NCBI GenBank assembly: GCA_026419785.1 | Contig: JAODTK010005820.1 | Span: 62,001 to 126,000 of the forward strand | Length of the DNA stretch: 64,000 nucleotides | Source: Sclerodactyla briareus | Lineage: Eukaryota > Echinodermata > Holothuroidea > Dendrochirotida > Sclerodactylidae | Reading direction: 5' to 3' | In this document: positions 1,823 through 39,201 of the stretch, in pieces | Layout of the letters: the number at the start of each line of letters is the position of its first letter | How positions within the stretch are numbered: the first letter of the stretch is position 1 | The notes under the pieces: model-generated | Seen by the model: only the letters and a program-made list of their open reading frames with translations | What the model was told of the DNA's origin: nothing | Database searches by the model: none | Program-made: the position numbers and the translations under genes

Positions 1823-2550
1823 CTATGGTTCCACTGCTAATGCCACACAGCCATGCATGCACAGTCCCCGCGGCATGAAGTTTTGGAGCAGTGTTCCCAT
1901 CTATCAATACTAGGCTCATATACCTCGGCACTATCCAACAATCCATCTTCTGCTTTGCCACCGACTACCCAGATCCGTTCATACAGCGAGATCACCCCGG
2001 AAACACTCGGTGTTCCATCGGTTGTTTATTGCTCGTCTCGGGTCTGTGGATGGATTATACGTAACCACGTCACGGGGTCTACGTCCACCAATCATTAGAA
2101 TCTTCCCGTCGAGGGGGGTCGCGCGAAGAGTCTTTCGCCTCAGGAGGTGCGCCACTTCAATCACCCTCCAGATTCCGAGGTCCACGTTGTAGATCTGAAT
2201 CTCGGGGCATGCGAGGCCATCCTCCGTTGCTCCTCCGATGACGTACACTTCTTCGTCGATGCATGCGACTGACGGGACGCTGACAGCGGTCGGTAGCTGG
2301 TCGAGTTCCCCTCCACTCGTTCTCGGACGGATCGAACCTCTCCACGGAGTTAGTCGTTTCTCGCGGAGACTGCTCTTACCACCTATCACTAGTAGTTTCC
2401 CGCGGTACTCGGTGGACCCGTGGCTGTGACGGGAGTGGATCATACCGGGCAGCGAGTACCAGATGTTCCGATTGTAGGAGTAACACCAAACTGAATTCAA
2501 TGATCTACTGCACACTACGTCAAAACCACCAGTTACGTAAATGTTCGTGC
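1823..2550 (-). CDS. kelch-like protein, exon 2 (most of the Kelch propeller)
   Basis: Second and last coding exon of a BTB-BACK-Kelch protein. The acceptor is a pyrimidine-rich stretch ending in TTTTGCAG just before 2550, and its phase fits the donor of exon 1 exactly: one base left over there, two here, making a Gly codon before TNIYVTGG. It encodes five blade-like units, each with the double-glycine signature: YVTGG, LLVIGG, VYVIGG, ILMIGG and IWVVGG. Each is followed by the usual Tyr/Phe then Trp spacing, such as VERFDPSENEW and AEVYEPSIDRW. The last strand ends in VALAVEP and a TAG at 1823-1825. The frame is broken by single-base shifts at runs: TTT 2357-2359, CCCC 2308-2311, TTT 2025-2027 and TTTT 1881-1884 (plus strand). 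Each restores blade-like sequence when bridged. Kelch propellers of this class usually capture substrates for Cullin-3 ubiquitin ligases. The KLHL orthologue cannot be told. Confidence 0.85.
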
Positions 2551-2910
2551 CTGCAAAATTCAAGAGGAATGGGAACACCAGTGAGTTTTCTGCACTCATG
2601 TATTTTTCCCGGAAAATTCAGTATTTTTTATTGCATCTTTCTTGTAGATAACTACCTGATAGTAACAGGTATGACACTGTCAATCAATGTTTTTTCCTGC
2701 TATATATGGTTTCCGATCTGTGTTCCATCATTACATAAATTATTTACGTATAGGAGTACAAGCGACAATCAAATGCATCATAGTATAACTACACTCGAGC
2801 CAATCCACACAGATTTCATTGAATAAACATCAACTGCGTGTACTGCCTGCATTGGCTGTTTCAACGTTTCGTCATTGAACACTTCATATCAACAAGAAGC
2901 GGAAGGAGAA

Positions 2911-3302
2911 CTGGGATTCCATAGATGCGTATGCGGGTCCGATACGCATGTGAAAAAAAGTCGCCAATTTATTGAGAGAGCGAGGGTTAGTGTTTGAATA
3001 TGTCCTATTTAGTTGCAAAGATAGATATTGGTTCCACCGAGGCAAAAACAGATATATATGAATGAAGGCAAATCAACACGAAGGCGAAATAAGCACATGT
3101 ACCAATGCGTATACGGATGCGTATCACTGCGAAAAAGCCAAACAACGACTATTGTATATGCATGAGCTGCGGCATTTCTATGGTCTGTTCGCATAAACTT
3201 AGTGTTTTCTCCTCTGAATCAAACTTCATGGTTTCGTAAATATGTGACTTTTACATCCAGGCCATACGTCCCGGACCGCATACGCAACAATGGAATCCCA
3301 GC
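2911..3302. mobile_element. MITE family 1, copy 1
   Basis: Terminal inverted repeats of about 28 bp: the left end begins CTGGGATTCCATAGATGCGT and the right end reads ACGCAACAATGGAATCCCAG. There is no coding capacity. The same internal sequence (including AGCACATGTACCAATGCGTA and GATGCGTATCAC) recurs at 16658-17066 and 48942-49350, so this is a non-autonomous DNA transposon family. I could not define a target-site duplication with confidence. It lies inside the kelch-like gene's intron. Confidence 0.8.
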
Positions 3303-3466
3303 CTTGGCCAAATGTTATTAGAGTGATAGTTGCGCCATTTTTTTTTCACATCGGTAACACTGTTAACGATAGCAATTTTCGCTCACATACAATCACAGTA
3401 TCGCCGATTACACATTCACTCACCCATAGGAGCACATGCCTGGAACTAACTGAAGCGCTGTTCACA

Positions 3467-4742
3467 CTAGTGCGATACGATACGATAATTTTATCGGATG
3501 GAGTTTTCACACTAGTACGATGAAAATTTCGTACGATAATTTTATCGGGCGTGTCGGCGCTCAATAAAACAGAGAATGTGGTGGGAGTTGAGTTGAAACG
3601 TTTTCCCTTTTGTCACCTCAGGCTAGTGGAATAACTTGGTCGGAAGAGTTTTTTAGTATCAAGAATTGCAATTCGAGGCAATTGAGAATCTGTGTCTTTT
3701 TCAGGACTTGTAGAGTGCGTTAGAAAGGTTTCGACACATTTTGAAGGAATCAACAACACTTACAGTCTTCTTCCAATCGTGGATCATTGTATGGCCCTCT
3801 ACAAGTTACCGATATTTCAACAGAGCATGAAATGCAACTTGGGGCACCCAATCACCCAGAGAGGAGGTCAGTACCCTCGCCCTATTTCCGGACACCGACC
3901 TCCATACCATCATACATTTCCCTACAATCCAGTATACTGCTCCACCTACCTGTCAGCCCTGCTACTGTCCTCAATGACCTACAAGACATTGGGCGTTAGC
4001 TCGATATTACCCCTAGAAATTATCGCCAATACCCTCCAATTTCCTGGTTCCAATCTCTCTTGTACTCTTTATATTTCCATCGAACGCTCACCCTTCCGTC
4101 AGAGGCGGTGCCAACCATACCCCCAGTGGGATCGGGGCGCACACAAGTGTCCACCGGAGGCGGTATCACTTTCTGTAACGTAATTTCAGGGGATTTCATG
4201 GCAGCGGAATTGAAAACATTAAGAATATAGGCTTTGGGTGTGGGTTAGAGCAGGGCGAAAGAAAACCTGGCACCGCCTCTCCCTCGACCCCTTTCTCTCT
4301 CCTGTCCATATGTTCTCTTTTTGTTATCTGGTGGAGGCCAACGCACCATGAGTCCACGACCCTCTCCCTTATCGTCACTGGTCGCGCTGGTATTGTATAT
4401 GAGAACGTCATGCCGAATTCAAGCTAAAATCATTGTTTTGTATGCGCTTTGTATGCGATATGTTAGGCAACATTGGGATCGACCATCTTACTCAGCGGTC
4501 GATGACTTGCCTTGGAGACATTCACACCCAATTACCCCCTATTTTATCGCCAAGACCCACGTTCACGCCAAACGTCCCCCAATAACCCGCTGGCGTTCCA
4601 TACCCTTGGGTAGGCTGTATGCGAAAGTTGATCAATGCATTGCGCAATTAATCGCATCCGGAGAATTTATCGTACGAAAAAGCTAAGAAAAAACTTGACG
4701 TCCGACAAAATGATCGTATCGTATCGTTCGCACTTGATGTAA
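3467..4742. mobile_element. non-autonomous TIR element in the intron
   Basis: The ends are inverted repeats about 80 bp long. The left arm, 3467-3550, includes GTGCGATACGATACGATAAT and later TTCGTACGATAATTTTATCG. The right arm, 4657-4742, read on the opposite strand has GTGCGAACGATACGATACGA and TTTTCGTACGATAAATTC. The interior (about 1.1 kb) has no domain-bearing reading frame. The left arm itself contains two direct copies of a unit of about 45 bp built around TTCACACTAGT. It looks like a medium-sized deletion derivative of a DNA transposon; the superfamily is not identifiable. Confidence 0.6.
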
Positions 4743-4814
4743 ATAACCCTCTGATACCATATATTGTTCGGATCTCATTTCATTGACAATAAGGACAGTC
4801 CTTATAGCACTCAC

Positions 4815-5879
4815 CTATCGCTGTTACGCAGTATTTCCTCTTCATATGATGGGGCATCGAAGCGAGCCGCGTCCAGCTGGCCGTCGTCTTCTTCCCGACC
4901 GAGGGATCGAGGAAGGTCGACATGGACGGCGCTGCTGCAGAGCGCCTCCCCGCCGTGAGAATGGTACTGTCCGCCGACCACTATCATTATGTGCGTCCTC
5001 TTCCCAGGATGCACGTACCTTGGGTACGTCTGGGCACCAATTACGCGGAACCCATCTCGCGAGAGGATCTGACAGCAGATCGCTTCGTTGATCACATCAA
5101 AGAGGTAACTCGACTGTTTTACGGTCTTGTTCTCCCGTCGTAGCTGTTTCAGTACAGATTCGCTCACTAGTGGTAGTCTGATGTTCTGGAAGACCTGTCG
5201 CGAGAATGGTTCCCTGGCCTCGAGGTTATGAGAGAGCCACCTCAGTGCGGCGAGTAGGACGTCATCTTCGTTCGGACTGCAGAGATGCTTGGAACGCAGA
5301 AGGCGTATGAATACTCTGGGGAGACGTCTAAAAGTGACATGGTTTGGCTGACCCTATCGAAATGCTTGTTAAGGAAAACCATCGCATCATTGAACAGTGA
5401 CAAACACGCCATGTGGTCGGCTGAAAATTGGATTAGATCTAGACAGTTGTAGATATTTATATTGTCTTTCAGAAAGAGGACGCATCCGCTGCAAAGACCT
5501 TCATAGTTTAGGAAATCTGCCGCCAGCAAAACCTCTTGCACGTTGCTAAGGGTCAATTTTAGCTCACCAGAATACACGTAGTCCAATACAAGTGACAACG
5601 TACCAGCGCTCATCTCTGGCAACATCACCCTGGTGGAGTCCCTTTCACTGAGATCCGAAGTGAACATCGCCCTGAAATACGGGCTGCTCGCACTTAATAA
5701 CGCCTTATGACAAGGGAACTCCTGTCCCCCGGCGCACAGCACAACGTCGGTGAATTCTGAATTTATCCTCATTTTCATCAAAGTTTGAGCAAATCAGTGG
5801 GATAGGATGGTTGGCAATGAACGTGAACACTTGGATCCGCCCGTTCAAATTCTGGAAAGTTAGTTGCTCTCCCCGCCAT
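4815..5879 (-). CDS. kelch-like protein, exon 1 (BTB, BACK, first Kelch blade)
   Basis: First coding exon of a kelch-like adaptor, likely a Cullin-3 substrate receptor. The start is ATG at 5879-5877, chosen because it has A at -3 and G at +4 and because the frame (MAGRATNFPEFERA...) runs into the BTB domain. BTB covers about residues 40-140 (SEFTDVVLCAGGQEFPCHKA, then ASSPYFRAMF, then LDYVYSGEL). The 3-box/BACK region follows to about residue 255 (CLDLIQF, FLNKHF, VLLAALRWLSHN). The first Kelch strand (IMIVVGG, SWTRLASMP) precedes a TAG|GTGAGTG donor. Single-base shifts break the frame near 5780-5782 (AAA run), near 5314 (after SPE) and at 4948-4951 (CCCC run). Bridging them, with those in exon 2, gives a protein of about 597 residues, normal for the family. 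Clustering at runs favours sequencing error, not pseudogenisation. Confidence 0.88.
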
Positions 5880-28652: not shown

Positions 28653-30063
28653 TTATATCCCCGCACACTGATAATGTCGGGGATCTTTATGGTTTTGATT
28701 GACCGTGTCCAACGCCGTCTCCGCCGCCGCGCCGCCGCCGCCGTCTCCGCCTCCGCCGTCCCTCCGCCGCCGCCGCCGGAACTTATGCCGGTAGTGTGCT
28801 CTCATTCTTAACAACTTTAATCCGATTGACACAAAACTTGGTACAACATGTCCGTAGGAGTAAATCTCAATAAGTTTGAAAATGGCCTATATCGTATATT
28901 TGCTGCCCTCTATTTTTGCCGGTTTCTGCAAAATTTTCAAAAGTTTGTGCGATTTACCGAAACGTGGTGGTAGGGGGTAGTTGTTGGAGTCCGGAAAACA
29001 TGGCAACTTCCAAGGTCATCCGAGGTCAGTTTGCATTTCTTTGGCCATTAGCTCAATTAGCATAATGATGTGATATTTCAAACTTCATTGGATTTTCATG
29101 AAACTTGGTGAATAGGGCCACCTATCAGTGCCGATTGAATTTTCCTAATGTGGCAGAGGTCACTGGAGGTCCATCTTGCCTGACTAATTGTGCATAATAG
29201 TTGGCCAATTAGCATTAGGCAAATTGCATCACTTTGTTTGGATTCTCACGAAACTTAGGGAGTAGGACCTTCTAACAGATCCCGATAAATTTATTCAATT
29301 GCGTGGAATCACTGAAGGTCATTTCGTGTGTTTAATTTTACATATTTCGTTAGCATAATTAGATAATTAATGCAATTATTGTCTCAACTTTATAGATTTT
29401 GACGAAACTTTTGTGATTAGGACCTCCTACCAGTCCTGATAACTTTATATTCAATGCATAAAGATCACTGAGGGTAAATTCGTGGGACTAATTGCATATT
29501 AGTTGTCCTGATCAGTCAAATGATGATTTAATACTTTTTTTCGCAATACATTGACGCTGTTCATTGGAAATGCATAATGCTTGTAGGAGTGGATGGCATC
29601 CCTGGAGTGTAACTTTTTCAAAAAAACCGCCAATGTCCATTGAAGGTCATTAACGGTCACTTACCGGGTCAAAACTGATTTTAGTACTTTTTCGGCAATA
29701 GCACTGGGTGTGTTCATCAATGCCAAATGCTCCTAGTAGTGGATGTAACACATTGGAATTAACATTCCTCATAAAAACTGTCAAATAATTCAGTTCATTC
29801 GGGTCACTTAGGGTCAAAAACTGTTTTTTCTGGGCTATAATCGGAGAATTGAATATCTGCGCAGCGGAATGGTTCACCATTGTGATATAATTGTTGACCT
29901 GCATGTGTGTACCTCTGATCTGAATGACCTCTGACGGTGTCATGGTGGTTAAGGTTGAGCTCCTTTCTACGAAATTGGTCCGTTTTCATGTTCACCAAAT
30001 TTCTTGAATAAGAGATGCGGGGGATATATACGTCTGGCGTTTACCCGCCCGACATTTTTCTAG
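28653..30063 (+). mobile_element. Helitron/Helentron-like repeat, copy A
   Basis: Starts TTATATCCCC with an immediate GGGGAT complement 28 bases on. It ends with GCGGGGGATATATACGTCTG, then a small hairpin (GGCG...CGCC), a T-run and CTAG. The start (TATATCCCC) and the GGGGATATA near the end are inverted copies. This asymmetric layout with a 3' hairpin and CTAG end matches what is known of Helitron2/Helentron non-autonomous elements. The interior has a CCGCCG-rich block (28714-28779) and many AGGTCA-like words. No Rep or helicase domain is present. Confidence 0.5.
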
Positions 30064-31457
30064 TTATCTTGTCATTCTGCTATAAACTCGGTGCATATGT
30101 AGTGGTGGTATTTGTATAGTGAGCATTCAGGATGTCTCAGTGTCTATATCCTGACAAACCATGCATAAATTAGACAATTAAGTTTTGGTCTGCTCATGTC
30201 ATTATATCCCTCAACACTGTAAGTGTTCGGGGATATTTGATTTGGCCGTGTGCCCCGCCGTCCCGCGCCTCCGCCGCCGCCGCCGAACTTTAGGCGTTAG
30301 CGCTCTCATCTCTTTAACCACTTTAATCCGATGGACCGCGAAAACTGGTCACATGTCCGTATTAGTAAAATCTTGGGAAAGTTCGAAAATGGGCTATATC
30401 GTATATTGTTGCCCTCTATTTTTGCGGTTTTTCGCAAATTTTTCAAAGTTTGTGCGATTTACAACAAACGTGGGGGTTGTGGTATTTGTTGAGCCGAAAA
30501 CATGGCGAACAATTTCAAGGTCCATCCTAGGTCAGTTTCATTTTTTGGCCGTAGCCTAATTATAGCATAATGTATGTGATATTTTCAAACAATTTCATTG
30601 GATTCTCATGAAACTTGTGAATAGGGCCAACTATCACTGCCAATGAATTTTCCTATGTTGTCCCGAGGTCACTGGAGGTCTCTTGCATGACTAATTTGCA
30701 TATAGTTGCCCAGTTAGCATTAGGGCCAATTTATAAACTGTGTTGGATCCTCATGAACTTGGTGAGTATGACCTTCTAACAGTCCCGATGAATTTTATTC
30801 AATTGCGTTGAAATCACTAGGTCATTATGTGTGTGTTTCTTTTACATATTCGTTAGCATAATTAGAATAATTATGCATAATTTTCTCAACTTTTTAGGGA
30901 TTTCGACGAAAACTTTGTGATAGGGACCTACTACCAGTCCTGATAATTTATTCAATAGCATCAAGATCACTGAGGGTAAATTTGTGGGACTAATTGCATA
31001 TTAGTTGTCCTGATCAGTCGGATGATGAGATTCAAATTACTTTTTTCGCAATAACCTTGGTACTTTTCATTGGAATGCCATAGTCCTATGAGTGGATGCA
31101 TACATGGCGTGTCACAATTTTTATAAGAGCCGCCATGTCATTGAAGGTCATTGAAGGTCACTTCGGGGGTCCAAAAACTGATTTTAGTACTTTTTCCACA
31201 ATAGCACTGGGCCGTGTTTCATCAGAATGCAAATGGCTCCTTAGAGTTGGATGTATTTCACATGGAGAGACAATTTTCCTGAAAACTGTCATTCATTAAG
31301 GTCATTCGAGGCACTTCGGGTCAAAAAACTGTTTTTTTGGCTATAAATCGGAGAATTGGAATATCTGCGAAGGCTGATTGGTTCACCATTGTGATTAAAT
31401 TGTTGGCCTCATGTGGTGTGACCTCTGACTTATTGACTCTGTCTGGTGGTCAAGTGG

Positions 31458-31710
<253 letters not shown>

Positions 31711-32534
31711 TCGAATCTTGAATAAATGTGCTTATTTAAGGAGTTATGGCAAAAAAAAATCGAATGGTTATTTTTTGATATGTGATCGGCTTTAATGGGC
31801 TTTAATGGAGGGAAACAACTCCCGCTTCGATCGGACACTTACTTTGCTAGTTACAAGGGTCAAAGTTTTCAATCTATTTCACTTACTCCCCTTACCCCAT
31901 ATTGACTTTGCACCCCCCCCGCGCCATTGAACCGCTGCAATCTTTACAGTAGTCCGGGCTGGCAACCCTATCGTCCTTCTTATTTTGCCAGTTGAACGTT
32001 TTAAGTTCATGAGCATCTTGGCTAAGACTTTCATCATCGATTCAATCGCCGACATCACCCTCTGCTTTCAATCGCATTCGAACATCTTCTAGGAGCATTT
32101 TCTGCCGGACGTCGTCTATCAGGATATGTGTATCCTTAGCGGTTGGCGTGATATTGGTTTGGATTTTTTTACTCCCGCTCGATCCCGTTTTCGTCCGTCC
32201 ATATTTATCCTAGGCTGCTCCTAGCACAATATGGCTGTGCATGGCTTTCCCCCCGTAGCCTAACACACGCGGGTTTGTGGGCTCCTATTGTTTTAGGTTT
32301 CAGTAGGCTGGACTGTTGTCCGGGCTTTCCCTAGCTTAGCCCCCCCCCGCGCCCTCCTTCCCCCTCCCTTGGGTTTTTTTCCCCTTCCCTCGCCTGTCCT
32401 TTCCTCCCCGGGGGGTGTGTCTCTCTCCGCTCGGCGCGGCGCTAAGGAATGTTACGCAAGACGTGTGAGAGCGGGGGAATGAGGGATACTTTTTGTCGTT
32501 AAGTTGGCTATTGGAGTCTAAGTTAACTTCTCTT

Positions 32535-32885
32535 ACGGAGTCGTTTACCGGCCGATACTTGTATTTTTTATCTTCTTATACTGCAATACCTCGTATATGA
32601 CAGTTCGCATATCATGTCGAAAATGATTCCTATTTGTGATATTGTTACCGGCCGTTTATTTGTATTTCTATTTCCCTATACAGGCAGACCTAGTAAGTAT
32701 GACATATCGCATATCACTCACTCGGAAATGATTCCTATCTGTGATATTATATGGTATACCGTTCGTTATCGACTGATTTTTTGTTAATTTTGTATAATCT
32801 TATACTGCAATACTTTCGTATTATGACATATCCATAGCATGTCGGAAGTGATTCCTATTTGTGATATTGATTGTATATCGTTTGG
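32535..32885 (+). repeat. tandem array, about 105-120-bp unit, three copies
   Basis: Three units inside the GC-rich element, each with ACCGGCCG or ACCGTTCG, a run including TATACTGCAATAC, a GACATATCGCATATCA-like block and ATGATTCCTATTTGTGATAT. These blocks recur near 32624, 32728 and 32848. AT-rich, unlike the rest of the element. Confidence 0.65.
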
Positions 32886-33199
32886 AGGAGCTATACTCCT
32901 GAAGTATATTTTCCGTAGCGGGACTTTCCTCAGATACGGGAAATTGTGTCGGCTACACGACCTTCCGGCCATCGCTACCTGGGACAGAGGAAGGCTGGGA
33001 GGCGCCGCCTTATCTACGAAGACTACCTACCGACGGAAGAGAAGACCCAGTGATACGGCGGCGCTCGAAGACGAGGAACGTTCCCGAGCTTGGCCCCTTC
33101 CGGGGCGCGTGGGCAGTGCTCGTTAGCACTGTAAGTCCCACAGGCATATAGCTCTGGGTCAGCATGAACCTAAAGCCGGCGGGGCGGGCCGAGGTGGCT

Positions 33200-33760
33200 C
33201 GTCTCGCACTTCGAGATGGCCGGCTCTGCTGGTCCCTCCTCGGCGCCCGGACCGAACGAGGTGTCCGTTTACACCCAGGACGGTCCTGAGGTCCCGACAG
33301 GTGAGGGAGGTCGGGCCGACCCAGTCGGGGCGGGCCGAATTCCGCTCGACTTTGCCTGGTCCAGGCCGACTGGTAAGGTCGCCGCCGGCCCTGCCGGGTC
33401 CCAACGTGGTTCGTTTACCCTCGGGACGGCCCGTAGGTCCCGACAGGAGAGGTCGGGGTCGGCCCGGCCGTGCCCGAACGGGGTGTCGTTACACTCCAGG
33501 ACGCCGAGGTCCCGACAGTCGAGGTCGGGCCGGCCCGGGCCGGGCCCGACGGGGTGTCGTACACCTCGGGACGGCCCGAGTCCCGCAAGCCTAGGTCGGG
33601 GCCGTCCCAGCCGGGGGTCCGAACGGGGGTGTGGTCACACTCGTGAGAGGAGGCAACGGACTGCCCTGGAGTCCCCGGACACGCAAGGGTCGGGGCCTGC
33701 CCCCGCCGGGTCCGATCGGGGGTGGTTACACCTCGAGGACCCGAGGTCCCGACGAGTGCG
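33200..33760. repeat. GC-rich tandem array, about 85-bp unit
   Basis: At least six units built from GGTCCCGACAG, GAGGTCGGGCCGGCC and CGAACGGGGTGTCGTTACAC. All overlapping reading frames on both strands are by-products of this GC-rich repetition and of missing stop codons. Confidence 0.65.
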
Positions 33761-34079
33761 GTCGGGACCGTTCCCGCGGCCGCGGATCCGGCTGGCCGGT
33801 ATTGCTCGGCATCAAGACCAGCGGCCAGGGGGACCAGGGATCCATGGGACCGGGATCGCCAGCCTACAGGCACCGCCTACATCGTCAACATCTTCCCAGG
33901 AAGGGTCTCTGCTCGGATATCGCAGGCCGCGAAGTTTACATTGGATATCCAAGCCGCGAGCCCTGCGGGGCGATTTTACAACAAGTTTCGCCGGTTTTTC
34001 AGACGTTTAGAGCGGCTGACGTTCCGAGGCCCGTACGGCTTGACGCTCTTGGACCCTCCCGGCCTCCGCGTAGGGGAGG

Positions 34080-34600
34080 TTAGCCCGCATCGGCCCCCTC
34101 AGGATCTTCAGCTGTGGGTGTTCCGGGCAGAGGGGGGAAGACGAAAGACGCTCCCCGATACCGAGATCGCGCGGGAGTCCTCCGGGGGTACAGGCAGTCC
34201 TCCCGAAACAGCCTAGCCCGGTAGTCCTCTTCTGCAGGCATGTGCGACTCCAAGTGAACAGTTTGTTCTACGCCCAGGAGCGGCGCGCTATTACCCCCGT
34301 AGTCCCCTCGGGGTCGGATGGACAGCATCTTTGTTAGTGTGCCGTTGATCCCGATCAACCTAGGGCGAGACTTAGGCGCTGGCGGTCTTTTTTCGGCGAT
34401 GGACTTGTTAAGGTCCCCCGCATCGCCAGACATCCACCGTTCTTGGTCCCTCTCCGACATATTTACTACGTTCGGGACAGGCTTCACTACGCTGTCGCTA
34501 TCCAAGTGAACCTCTATCGCTCGTTGGCCGGTGGCCCTCCTAATCCATTGGCCAGTCTGTCAGCTTGAGCGCGAGTGACCTTTAAGGCCGCACGGACCAT
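34080..34600 (-). CDS. unrecognised, possibly coding frame inside the GC-rich element
   Basis: The minus strand has a 141-codon frame (34505-34080) that is not obviously repetitive (for example RDQERWMSGDAGDLNKSIAE and GINGTLTKMLSIRPRGDYGG). One base shift upstream (near 34510), the frame continues as ALKVTRAQADRLANGLGGPP to about 34600. Still further upstream, around 34640-34770, another frame reads IPLLVGSLQGLNFFSGLLDE. I recognise no family. If the element is a DIRS-like retroelement this could be a gag-type ORF, but that is a guess from position. The composition could also be chance in GC-rich DNA. Confidence 0.2.
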
Positions 34601-35396
34601 TGCACAGGGCCTGGGACGCAGCCCGTTTCGTTAAGAGTTGGCTTCATAAGCCATCCATCGCGGGCCGGGGCCTCCTCGCGGGATTTTCGAAGAAGTTCGT
34701 CTAGCAGGCCGGAAAAAAAATTAAGTCCCTGGAGGGAGCCGACTAGTAAAGGAATCTTCCACCACAGGTCTACGTCAGGTCCCGCGTCTACGCCTCCCGC
34801 CTAGACTTATGGGGGAGCCGCTCCGAGGTCAGCGGCGGGGTTTGGCGGCGGCCGTCCCAGGAGCGCCCACCCTGCCAGAGTCGGATCTTCTTCAAAAGAG
34901 ATCAGCTGGCTCGCTGTGGCCACTGATGCTGGCAACTACTAGTGTCGCAGGCGAATGGACTCCTCTCTAGGCCTGCCCCCCCCCCCCTTTCCCGGGCGGA
35001 GGGCACCGGGGCGGGTGCAGGCATCCACTATCTGCGAACGTTACAAGCCGTTGCAGTCTAGGACCCTGGCGCGTTTAGTCTGTCAGGGTAGGGCTTCCAA
35101 GCGTACTGGCCATGCTTCCGTGGGAGAGACGAGCAGTTGGCTTCCTTCCCTCGGGTTCTTACCAGGCCACTCTCGGCTCACCCTCCGTAGCCGAGGCTCT
35201 AGAGAAAGAGGGCTCGCCTACATCGACAGCTTACTGAAGATAGCGGGGACTAACTACAGGAAACGTCCCAAATAGGACTTTGCCGGAATTTGCTGGCGGA
35301 CTAATACGTCTCGCCCTGTTAACGCCTACTTGACCATAGGTCGTGCCCAGTCTCGCCGACGTCTCGTCTCTGCTGAGTAGATCTCGTCCACTCTTC

Positions 35397-35960
35397 TGCC
35401 GTCTACTACTCCGTGGCCCCTATTACTTCTTTGGCACAGTTACACCTTCACGTCTCACGCGCGCTTTCCCCGAGGCCGGCACGTTCGCTCGATCGACCCG
35501 ACCTGTCGGCTGAGAGACAGAACCATACAGCCCGTTTACGGAGCATCCGGCTCACCCCGAGGTAGCCGGCTCTCGGGCAAGCCGTCTCTGCCGTCTACTC
35601 GTGGACCCAATGGCTTTACTTCGACGCAGTCATCACCTTCACGTCCGGACGCGCTTTTTCCTGAAGCCAGCACGCTCGCTCGATCGCCCCGCCCTGTCCT
35701 CTGAGAGACACAGAACCATACAGCCCGTTTACGGAGGCAACCGGCTCACCCCGATGTAGCCGTGCTCTCTGCAGCGTCTCTGCCGTCTACTCCGTGTACC
35801 CCAGTGGCTTACGTCAACGCGTCATCACCTTCACGTCGGACACGTTTTTTCCTGAAGTCAGCCCGTTCCGCGACCACCCGCCCTGTTCGCTGAGCGAAAC
35901 ATAACGTCCGGCCATTGACGGAGCACCAGCCTATACCCCGAGGGTAGCCGTGCTCCCCTA
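35397..35960 (+). repeat. tandem array, about 190-bp unit, three copies
   Basis: Three units anchored by GCCGTCTACTCCGTG at about 35399, 35589 and 35782. Each continues with CATCACCTTCACGTC, TTTTTCCTGAAGCCAGCACG, a CTGAGAGACA.AACCATACAG block and GAGGTAGCCG.GCTC. Copies differ largely by indels. Confidence 0.65.
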
Positions 35961-36049
35961 CAGCCGGCCCTTTTACAGACCCGGGCTAGGCCGACCCCGC
36001 TGACAGCGGAGTGCCACGTTGGTGGGCGTTCCATGTTCCCCAGCCGGGA

Positions 36050-37000
36050 CTTTTCTCACTAGAGACTCCAGAGCGGTCCCTGTGGCCTCCAGAGCCGTGA
36101 ACGCGTCTCTCCCTGCCTCCCCGAACCGGTCTTGCTGCCCTCCGAATCCGTGGTAGGCTCTCCGAGCCGTGAACCGTCTCTGTTTGCCGTCTCGAGGCAG
36201 TGTGTCGACGCTCTTCCGACCCTCCGGAGCTTTGGTCGACTTCTTCGGCCCTCCTGATTTAGATTGCTCTCCCGAGCCCTAGGGTCGGCCTTCCCCGGTT
36301 TTTCCTTCCATTTCCCGTGGTCTGACCTCTATCAGCCGCCTGGGCCAGAGACGGGCTCGTCCCCGGGTCGGAGGGTTATCCCTACCGACTCCCTCCGAGC
36401 CTTCATCCCCTTCTCCGACTCTCCTTAGCCAGATCGAACCTCCCGACCGCGGTTCGACTTTCCCGTCTCTCTTGAGCCACGGACCGACTCTTCAAGCCAT
36501 CCCAAGCCAGCTCCCCTGTGCAGTGCTTCGCTCATCCCCGGTCTTGCATCGCGGAGCCCGACTCTTCCTGCCCTCCTGTGTGGAGTCGGCCCTACCGAGC
36601 TGAGGATCGGACCTGCCGCCTCACCAGAGCAGTGTTCTAGACTCTTCCTGCCTCCTGGGTGAGATCAGCTCTACCGAGCCTAGGATCGAGCCTTGGCCTA
36701 CTCTCCATAGCATGGTCCCCACTCTTCCTGCCGGCCTCCCTTGGAGCATCGATCCCCTGGGATTGGGTCATCATCCCGAGCTTCCAAGCCGTATTCCCCA
36801 CTCTCCCGTCCCTCGCTGTTTAGGTCGGCCCCTTCCGAGCAGAGGATCGGGCCTGCCGACTCATCAGAGCAGTGGCCCCGACCTTTCTTCTTTCTGGCCA
36901 CTCCTCGGAAGCCAGATCGACTCTCCCGAGCCGTGGGTGGGTTCACCCGTGATCGACTCTTTAGGCCTCCCGGGCCAGATTGGTACACCCAAGCCTGCGG
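36050..37000. repeat. short-period CCGAGCC-rich array
   Basis: Irregular units (roughly 40-60 bp) with CTCCCGAGCC, GATCG.CTCT and CTTCCTGCC words. Translated frames on the plus strand are Ser/Pro/Arg-rich for that reason alone. The array gives way to unique sequence after about 37000. Confidence 0.5.
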
Positions 37001-39201
37001 TCGCAGCCGGGCACCTACCCTTTCGACATCCGAAGCCAGTTCAGCTCTCGCGCGGTGGGTCGACCCACGGCGGTCCGTGGGTCGGGTTCACCCGTCGAGA
37101 GACTTACCTCTGCAACCGTCCGGAATTCTATCCCACGGTTTGGAGGGGCGTCAGGTGTGGGTGTCCGTTGGCGGTCCACGGCACTGGTACTGGTGAAAAC
37201 GAATTCGTTCGTCAACGCATCCAACTCTTCTTCCTATGTGGTCAGCTTTTCTCTCCGGCAATCGACGGCTTTTCTCATTCCGTGGGATCGAGAGCCTCGC
37301 AAGGCCCATATCTCTGAGCAGATTTCGCTCGGGTCCCAATGTGCACTACCTCGTTGCACCGCGAGCCTGGAGATTCGGCCCTCCTCGTTCCCCCGAACTA
37401 CGCTTCTTCGCGAGACGGTATGCGAGAGTCGTGGTGTTTACCACACGACGCCGTTTCATCTGCTTCTCCAACACTTCCTCGGCCTAGCGGCACGAAGGGC
37501 TGCTCTGCAGCTACAACCGACAACAACCCCTGTTCGTGACGCACGGACCCGCCTCCAGTGCCCTGTGCTAGTCTGGTGCGTGCAATCTGGGGGTATGTTG
37601 AGTAAGTGAACTAAGATTTCACAAAACTACTGATTATGATCTGTGAACTACGATACTTCCCCATATTGGACGTACCCACCTACCGTCCCCACTTCCGGGC
37701 CATCAGGGGGCCTCCTCCTTCGTCGGATCGAGGGCCTACGCCCCTCAATCCCTTGGAGGCCTCTGCCTAGAAAAATAAGACGGACGATAGGGTTTGCCAG
37801 CCCGACTACTGTAAAAGATTGCCAGATTTTCAATGGCGCGGGGTGGGTGCAAAGTGCACTACGGGGTAAGTATTCGTAGTTCACAGATCCAAACACAGTA
37901 AGTTTTTTGTGAATGTTATACCTTTTTTCATATTTTCGCAATACATTGGACATGTTTCATTGGACTGCACATATGCTTCCTAGGAGTGGAGGCATCACAT
38001 GGAAGTGTAACATTTTCGCTCAAAACACGCATGTCATTGTAAGGTCATAAAGGTCACTTATGGGTCAAAAACCTGATTTTAGTACTTTCCTGGCAATCGC
38101 TCACTGGGTGTGTTTCTACTATGCAAAATGCTCCTAGGCTAGGAGTGGATGTATCACTGGAGAGTAACAATTTCATAAAAAGTCCATATCATAGGTCATT
38201 CAAGGTCACTTAGGGTCAAAAACTGTTTGTTTGGCTATTATCGCAGATTGAATATCTGCGAAGGCTGGAATGGTCACCATGTGATGTACTTGTTGGCCTG
38301 CATGGTTGACCTCTGACCTGAATTTGACCGCTTTCGGTTGTGTATGTGGTTAAAAGGTCCGAAGCTATCTTGAATAAATGTGCTTATTTAATGAGTTATG
38401 GGCAAAAAAACTAGAAACTGGCTATTTTTTGATATGTGATAGAGCTTTGTTTGCTTTATGGAGGAAACACTCCCGCTTCTATCAGACACATACTTTGGAG
38501 TTACAAGGGTTCAAGTTCAATTTTATAAACCTTTTTTGCAATACATTGGACATTTCATTGGAAGCAATATGCTTCCAGGATGTAGTGAATGCATCACTGG
38601 AGTGTAACAATTTTCTAAAAACCGACCTTGTCATTGAAGGTCATAAATGGTCACGTAGGGGTCAAACTGATTTTAGTAACTTTTTTCGGCAATAGCACTG
38701 GGTGTGTTTCTCAGAATGCAAATGCTCCTAGGAGTTGATGTATCGCATGGAGAGTAACCATTCCTCATAAAAACCTGTCATATCCTTAAAGGTAATTCGA
38801 GGTCACTTAGGGTCCAAAACTTGTTTTTTGGCTATAATCGGAGAATTGAATTCTGCGAAGGCTGGATGGTTTCACCATTGTGCATATAATTGTTTGGCCT
38901 GCATGTTGTGTGATCTCTGACCTGAATTTTGACCTCTTTCCGGGTGGTCTGTGGTTAAAGTTCGAATCTTGAATAATGTGCTTAGTTCAGGACGCACCTT
39001 GTCCGGGGCTGTAGAGGGGCCTCATACAGTAACGCGTGCACTTTTTTATCGAATGACCCATTTCCCTTGTACACTTTGTTGCTTCACAAGTCTAATAAAT
39101 GTCCTTCTTTCCACGATATTGTCCGGTTTATGTTACCCAAATTTCCTTGATAGTAGATTTCGGGATATAAACGCTGGCGTTTACCGCCCGACATTTTCTA
39201 G

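What the first reader, a model, noticed from the sequence alone, without database searches (positions are those of the whole stretch)
31891..37870. GC-rich 6-kb element with inverted ends plus an extra complementary segment beside the right end
It has 95-bp inverted terminal repeats, and the segment at 37638-37685 is complementary to the outermost right end and also resembles the left end. Inverted terminal repeats with an internal complementary region next to the right one are the hallmark of DIRS-type tyrosine-recombinase retroelements. The GC-rich interior with three or four distinct tandem arrays and no readable RT is unusual and may mark a non-autonomous or new lineage.
Basis: partly seen in the sequence, partly recalled or inferred. 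Interest (0 to 1): 0.7.

Follow-up and report, generated by a model that had tools for sequence, protein, structure and literature searches.

The report
Gene-less 6-kb DIRS-type jumping element
This is a mobile DNA element that keeps all the special end sequences of a DIRS retrotransposon but seems to carry none of its genes, so it probably moves by borrowing the enzymes of a related element in the same animal genome.

Summary
The element is 31871-37914 (6,044 bp). Its ends are inverted repeats (88% over 100 columns). The 'extra' segment is a double internal complementary region (ICR): one half complements the LEFT terminus, the other the right, together the reverse complement of a circle junction. 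A neighbouring host repeat is an empty site: insertion at AAT, no target duplication. These are the cis features of DIRS retrotransposons. The family is multicopy. No reverse transcriptase (RT) is detectable: RT frames of two DIRS loci of this genome score no better than shuffles, while a planted 50%-identical RT with similar noise is found in 18 of 18 copies. One RT-bearing DIRS locus has a homologous ICR and right end (its left end was not found), so trans-mobilisation by that lineage is the best reading. Caveat: window 28.7-39 kb and the long copies compared look like unpolished long-read sequence, so apparent decay and missing ORFs alone prove little; a very divergent RT, and the other DIRS genes, are less well excluded. 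Verdict: a non-autonomous DIRS, new variant of a known kind.

The parts
31871..31890 (+). Left terminus: crossover trinucleotide AAT (31871-31873) and divergent outer part of the left inverted repeat
   Evidence: AAT precedes the left-end motif in 14 of 18 distinct chromosomal left junctions found; complement found in the left ICR
31891..31986 (+). Left inverted terminal repeat, conserved part
   Evidence: 88% inverse match to 37772-37870, E 4e-26
32545..32882 (.). AT-rich array, units ~105-117 bp
   Evidence: self-BLAST and lag spectrum over copies
33245..33777 (.). GC-rich array, unit ~73-75 bp across copies (71 by TRF here)
33790..35390 (+). Non-repeated GC-rich interior; no RT detectable; majority sequence of 34300-35390 has stops in all six frames
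   Evidence: 34000-35300 matched at all 40 scored places, the window included
35395..35955 (.). GC-rich array, unit ~186 bp across copies (191 by TRF here)
36557..36887 (.). GC-rich array, unit ~76-80 bp
37575..37618 (-). Left ICR: reverse complement of the left terminus
   Evidence: 0 of 1000 shuffles; double ICR present in 11 of 12 long copies
37616..37618 (.). Circular-junction trinucleotide ATT, complementary to the AAT termini
   Evidence: position; same layout in copies
37616..37680 (-). Right ICR: reverse complement of the right terminus including its extension
   Evidence: (alignment from 37618); homologous to the ICR of locus L056
37772..37870 (-). Right inverted terminal repeat, conserved part
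   Evidence: the family's right end matches L056, score 80 against null maximum 31
37871..37914 (-). Right extension, complementary to the right ICR only, ending GTGAAT
38360..38640 (+). Paralogous host repeat unit that serves as the empty site; AAT at 38519-38521
   Evidence: left flank aligns up to CAAT, right flank from AAT on, no other duplicated target bases

Best explanation
A non-autonomous DIRS-type (tyrosine-recombinase, YR) retrotransposon. It keeps the cis elements of DIRS (inverted ends, right extension, double ICR equal to the reverse complement of the end-to-end junction, AAT/AAT termini), while ~5.5 kb of GC-rich sequence and arrays without detectable coding stands where DIRS carry gag, RT-RNase H-methyltransferase and YR. 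Proposed cycle: its RNA is reverse transcribed in trans by the enzyme of a related DIRS; the ICR bridges and completes the two ends into a circle with an AAT junction; that element's YR recombines the circle with a genomic AAT, with no target duplication. Shown here: ends, ICR, junction, one empty site, copy number, relatedness of ICR and right end to an RT-bearing DIRS locus, absence of a recognisable RT. Inferred: circular intermediate, trans-mobilisation, identity of the helper.
For: ITRs; both ICR halves, in 11 of 12 long copies; empty site without duplication; AAT at 14 of 18 left junctions; multicopy with shared interior and 40 of 40 scored right-end+ICR places at 83-100%, the window being the 100%. 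A recalled DIRS-RT query has 150 scored matches in the genome, the best ~50% identical. RT-bearing C1951 locus (L057 304-aa frame, 49% to that query, E 2e-29; RVT_1 E 1e-4 but below Pfam's cut-off) has an ICR matching ours (score 82, null maximum 30) and a matching right end (80, null maximum 31). A second DIRS, L054, shares the right-ICR core (45, whole-locus null maximum 32). L057 RT against 18 noisy copies: best 25.4 bits, 18 of 20 shuffles do as well, while a planted 50%-identical RT is found in 18 of 18.
Against: The letters are noisy, so a very divergent RT cannot be excluded (planted at 40% identity 8 of 18 copies detected, at 30% 1 of 18). The recalled RT query gave a weak match over the YLDD region near 35.2 kb (best E 0.004; 2 of 150 shuffles do as well; its last third 0 of 40), which the genome's own RTs did not confirm. 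RNase H, methyltransferase and YR were tested only through unlabelled ORFs of L054 and L056/L057; two L054 queries (2322 and 2585) beat most shuffles (1 of 25 and 4 of 25 reached them). The 36940-37560 piece has one 197-aa open frame, above the shuffle 95% limit of 175 (9 copies). The left end of the C1951 relative was not found; a third RT locus (L055) showed no match in the stretch fetched; the left end of L054 resembles ours only weakly (56 of 2000 shuffles do as well). L010 shows neither ICR nor right end. One empty site only was examined.
Confidence: 0.85

Rival explanations
1. An ordinary autonomous DIRS whose genes are hidden by sequencing noise or by strong divergence of its proteins.
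For: The block is noisy; weak YLDD-like match near 35.2 kb; L054-ORF queries 2322 and 2585 above most shuffles; one 197-aa open frame in 36940-37560.
Against: RT frames of two DIRS loci of this genome find nothing above shuffles (22 of 25 and 18 of 20 shuffles do as well), with planted controls detected at 50% identity in 18 of 18 and at 40% in 8 of 18; majority sequence of 34300-35390 has 4 or more stops in every frame; arrays of ~74, 186 and ~77 bp take up much of the interior.
Confidence: 0.09
2. A DDE DNA transposon or MITE-like element with terminal inverted repeats.
For: Inverted ends; short internally deleted copies (L011, L015, L016, L020, L025 among 20 loci).
Against: No target duplication at the window copy; a double ICR and one-sided extension have no role in DDE elements (established knowledge); ICR and right end homologous to an RT-bearing DIRS locus.
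Confidence: 0.02
3. The inverted ends and ICR are an assembly artefact of a chimeric or hairpin long read.
For: Noisy block and a 215-bp poly-T followed by 36 A at 31458-31708 next to the element.
Against: Same architecture in 11 of 12 long copies with different flanks; short, cleaner copies carry the same ends.
Confidence: 0.01
4. A YR element of another kind (Crypton, Ngaro or PAT type).
For: YR-type insertion without duplication; a YR frame that looks Crypton-like (label recalled) exists in the genome (C1216).
Against: Inverted rather than split direct repeats, with a double ICR, mark DIRS1-like rather than Ngaro/PAT; homology to an RT-bearing DIRS locus.
Confidence: 0.03

Closest known systems
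DIRS1-like retrotransposons of molluscs, e.g. LgDIRS2 of Lottia gigantea (PMC3266345; passages, section 10 with Table 3)
   Same: AAT start, AAT end, ATT circular junction, right extension (46 bp there, ~44 bp here), double ICR; no target duplication in the superfamily's model
   Different: LgDIRS2 is 5,036 bp with a 141-bp conserved ITR, from a survey that screened by coding-domain profiles; here 6,044 bp, ~97-bp conserved ITR, no coding detected
RT-bearing DIRS locus G000:C1951, right end near 157.2 kb, extending beyond ~162 kb (L056/L057), same genome
   Same: Homologous ICR and right end; GC 0.62 in L057
   Different: Carries a DIRS-type RT frame; no DNA similarity between the window element and L057 at E 0.01; left end not found in 158100-163900
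DIRS locus L054 (C2919), same genome
   Same: ITRs and double ICR; right-ICR core with a 17-nt exact match
   Different: RT frame (RVT_1 E 5e-6, below Pfam's cut-off); GC 0.515; otherwise different ITR sequence
LARDs (large retrotransposon derivatives of LTR elements; recalled, only listings seen)
   Same: Long non-coding interior between intact cis ends, presumed trans-mobilised
   Different: LTR ends and integrase instead of inverted ends, ICR and YR

Membership tests
DIRS1-like retrotransposon | Inverted terminal repeats with divergent outer and conserved inner part | tested here: met
DIRS1-like retrotransposon | Left ICR complementary to the left end and right ICR complementary to the right end, overlapping in a 3-bp circular junction | tested here: met
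   11 of 12 long copies; definition read in PMC3266345
DIRS1-like retrotransposon | Right extension complementary only to the right ICR | tested here: met
DIRS1-like retrotransposon | Insertion without target duplication beyond the junction trinucleotide | tested here: met
   one empty site; AAT at 14 of 18 left junctions
DIRS1-like retrotransposon | Encodes RT / RNase H / methyltransferase | tested here: not met
   RT not detectable with controls; no credible Pfam hit in 148 of 228 ORF pieces. RNase H and methyltransferase only through unlabelled ORFs
DIRS1-like retrotransposon | Encodes a tyrosine recombinase | tested here: inconclusive
   no hit in the ORF pieces, but PF00589 found only one place in a genome rich in DIRS RTs, so that model probably misses DIRS YRs
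Non-autonomous DIRS (filed here) | DIRS cis ends, no detectable RT, and an RT-bearing DIRS with related ends in the same genome | tested here: met
   only the ICR and right end of the relative could be compared, its left end was not found
Non-autonomous DIRS (filed here) | Mobilised in trans | not testable with these tools
   inference only
DDE DNA transposon | Fixed-length target-site duplication | tested here: not met
   one copy
Ngaro/PAT type | Split direct repeats | tested here: not met
   repeats are inverted

The most novel reading that the evidence does not exclude
A LARD-like class of DIRS parasites: a multicopy element that retains the cis signals of DIRS replication and carries a shared gene-free interior whose GC-rich arrays have a cis role, mobilised by C1951-type DIRS with homologous ICR and right end. 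The still smaller copies with both ends and little or no interior would then show which cis signals are enough.
Probability: 0.4. Interest if true: 0.6.

Novelty: new variant of a known kind. Interest (0 to 1): 0.42.

Why it matters
The ICR/circle model of DIRS rests largely on sequence anatomy. A high-copy element that keeps both ends and the ICR and drops the genes is a natural experiment on which sequences are needed in cis, and a ready-made reporter substrate. In the held open-access library no paper holds any of six phrases such as 'non-autonomous DIRS' or 'nonautonomous DIRS'; that does not cover Repbase or most subscription journals. It also warns that noisy gap-fill sequence can mimic ancient decay.

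Tried and rejected
Rfam on 31400-38400: no family. PF00589 in the genome: one place, C1216 (L044/L045), a YR frame without similarity to the element at E 1. Pfam on 8 window ORFs: one row, DUF3618, below its cut-off. Pfam on 148 of 228 sense-strand ORF pieces of 75 aa or more from 12 copies: four single-member rows at E 0.012-0.041, taken as chance. Period-3 coding test: dropped as powerless after its control (real coding 0.011, 600-bp windows sd 0.0104). The weak YLDD-like match was not confirmed with the genome's own RTs. Decay as the cause of the ~20% divergence: rejected because ti/tv is ~0.5 and indels of 1-2 bp dominate. A clean interior copy was sought: of the 40 scored places the best other than the window reached 81%. 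Cross-check by eye of the 150 RT places with the end places: ten shared contigs, no RT within a listed element; the nearest is ~7.5 kb away (C3079).
Full report
1. Observation. The inverted ends are real: 31891-31986 against 37772-37870, 88% over 100 columns, E 4e-26. Read together it is the reverse complement of right end joined to left end, with ATT at 37616-37618 where the AAT of both termini would overlap. The element therefore runs from AAT at 31871 to AAT at 37914, 6,044 bp.

2. Family. With the left 100 bp, 40 of 626 first-look candidates were scored and all match; with ICR plus right end 40 of 665, at 83-100%; with the interior 34000-35300 40 of 163, at 76-81% apart from the window itself; with a cleaner left end 40 of 989. 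The tool scores the best candidates only, so these are lower bounds. I fetched 20 stretches that cover places. By BLAST and by reading the letters: 11 carry most of the 6-kb interior (L009, L010, L014, L018, L019, L021-L024, L027, L028), 5 have both ends with most of the interior missing (L011, L015, L016, L020, L025), 4 have one kind of end only (L012, L013, L026 left; L017 right). Among the 11 long copies plus the window the double ICR is present in 11 of 12; L010 shows neither ICR nor right end.

3. Insertion. The element sits in a repeat whose next unit is empty. The left flank aligns with 38367-38521 up to CAAT and the right flank from AAT on, so the empty site has one AAT and the filled site one at each end, with no other duplication. 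This is one empty site; others were not examined. A motif search of L002-L045 and the window gave 35 left-end matches; 17 were the junction inside an ICR and were set aside; of the remaining 18 chromosomal left junctions 14 have AAT, 2 AGT, 1 ACA, 1 TAT. The left ends of L009 and L021 were not matched by the motif and are not in the count. That is what tyrosine-recombinase insertion of a circle with a 3-bp junction predicts (model as given in PMC3266345; passages, section 10).

4. Sequence quality. Long copies differ from each other by ~11% mismatches and a gap opening about every 16 bp; 10,150 of 11,831 gaps are 1-2 bp, and transitions:transversions are 7,482:14,474. In 28 pairs of eight interior loci (one of them the window, one the locus of L019) the ratio is 0.39-0.70. 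Repeats inside window 28.7-39 kb show the same (summing six pairs: 120:262), seven repeat pairs elsewhere in the window 161:173, and short copies of the ends compared with L012 41:40 (all). Random errors of unpolished long reads explain this better than age (inference). The apparent degeneracy of the interior is therefore not evidence of decay, and missing ORFs alone are not evidence of missing genes.

5. Coding tests that allow for noise. (a) Majority letters of five separate interior pieces, held in memory only: 34300-34850 and 34850-35390 have at least 4 stops in each of six frames, longest open stretches 72 and 78 aa against shuffle means 103 and 109; 32890-33250 and 33790-34300 are near expectation; 36940-37560 has one 197-aa frame against a shuffle 95% of 175, with 9 copies. 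(b) The RT frame of L057 against 18 copies: best 25.4 bits, reached by 18 of 20 shuffled queries; five further ORF queries of L056/L057 are reached by 9 to 19 of 20 shuffles; the RT planted in 18 artificial copies with comparable noise is found in 18 of 18 at 50% identity, 8 of 18 at 40%, 1 of 18 at 30%. (c) The RT frame of L054: best 24.6 bits, 22 of 25 shuffles do as well; of its other five ORF queries three are at shuffle level, one (2322) is reached by 1 of 25 and one (2585) by 4 of 25 shuffles. (d) A recalled generic RT gave a weak match at its YLDD end near 35.2 kb: 2 of 150 shuffles do as well, 0 of 40 for the last third alone. I take (b) and (c) as the better tests of RT, but record (d). 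RNase H, methyltransferase and YR are less well tested. Unit lengths of the arrays, ~74, 186 and ~77 bp, are mostly not multiples of three.

6. Related RT-bearing DIRS. The recalled RT query has 150 scored matches (of 389 candidates) in the genome, the best ~50% identical; the weakest may be other RTs. Of three such loci examined at the right side, two share ICR sequence with ours. C1951 (L056/L057): ICR score 82 against a null maximum of 30 in 300 shuffles, right end 80 against 31 in 200, and 72% over 135 columns, E 3e-8, by BLAST with the window element; its 304-aa frame matches RVT_1 at E 1e-4, below the Pfam cut-off, and the recalled RT query at 49%, E 2e-29. C2919 (L054): ITRs and double ICR of its own, right-ICR core score 45 against a whole-locus null maximum of 32, RVT_1 E 5e-6, also below the cut-off; its left end resembles ours only weakly (56 of 2000 shuffles reach the score). 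C2988 (L055): nothing in the 1.8 kb fetched. The left end of the C1951 locus was not found in 158100-163900, so that copy is truncated or its left end has diverged.

7. Mechanism and place among known things. The anatomy is that of a DIRS1-like element; of the elements in the table I read, LgDIRS2 with AAT/AAT/ATT and a 46-bp right extension is the nearest. The coding part of the definition is not met for RT. I therefore file it as a non-autonomous DIRS and infer trans-mobilisation by a DIRS of the C1951 kind. It works like a DIRS at its ends and, by analogy (recalled), like a LARD in its interior.

8. Novelty. Seven literature searches in the held library; a phrase search for six wordings of non-autonomous, defective or truncated DIRS gave no paper. 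Of the papers listed I saw passages of PMC3266345, PMC9210276, PMC8498967, PMC8969392 and PMC12477816 and section 10 of the first; the rest only as listings. Repbase cannot be searched here, so entries of this kind may exist.

Noticed in passing
window 28700-39000: Block of noisy, unpolished-looking sequence (ti:tv 120:262 in its repeats against 161:173 elsewhere), probably a long-read gap fill.
   Followed up: yes
window 31458-31708: A 215-bp poly-T (95% matches) followed directly by 36 A, just left of the element's flank; probably a sequencing artefact.
   Followed up: no
L012:7295-7612, L013:462-784 and 873-1307, L026:7402-7601: Fragments that begin at the left terminus, stop after ~200-435 bp and are flanked by ~30-40 bp direct repeats of target DNA (imperfect in L026; read by eye); not the usual YR outcome, possibly aborted insertions closed by end joining.
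   Followed up: partly
L011, L015, L016, L020, L025: Internally deleted copies with both ends; the four shortest (~190-270 bp) are near-palindromes that appear to lack the ICR.
   Followed up: partly
window 28740-31459 and 37933-38987: Host repeat block (copies ~0.6 and ~1.5 kb apart) into which the element inserted; it supplies the empty site.
   Followed up: partly
window ~1982-5793: Kelch, BTB and BACK domains in open frames (one frame each among 44 scanned); the Kelch frame is 1982-2617 on the minus strand: a Kelch-like gene.
   Followed up: no
L045:3709-4224 (C1216): Tyrosine-recombinase frame that looks Crypton-like (label recalled), the only PF00589 place found in the genome.
   Followed up: partly
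G000, places: 150 scored matches to a recalled DIRS-type RT query, several with open frames of 200-400 codons, so DIRS is probably abundant in this genome; some places are listed in two pieces and weak ones may be other RTs.
   Followed up: no
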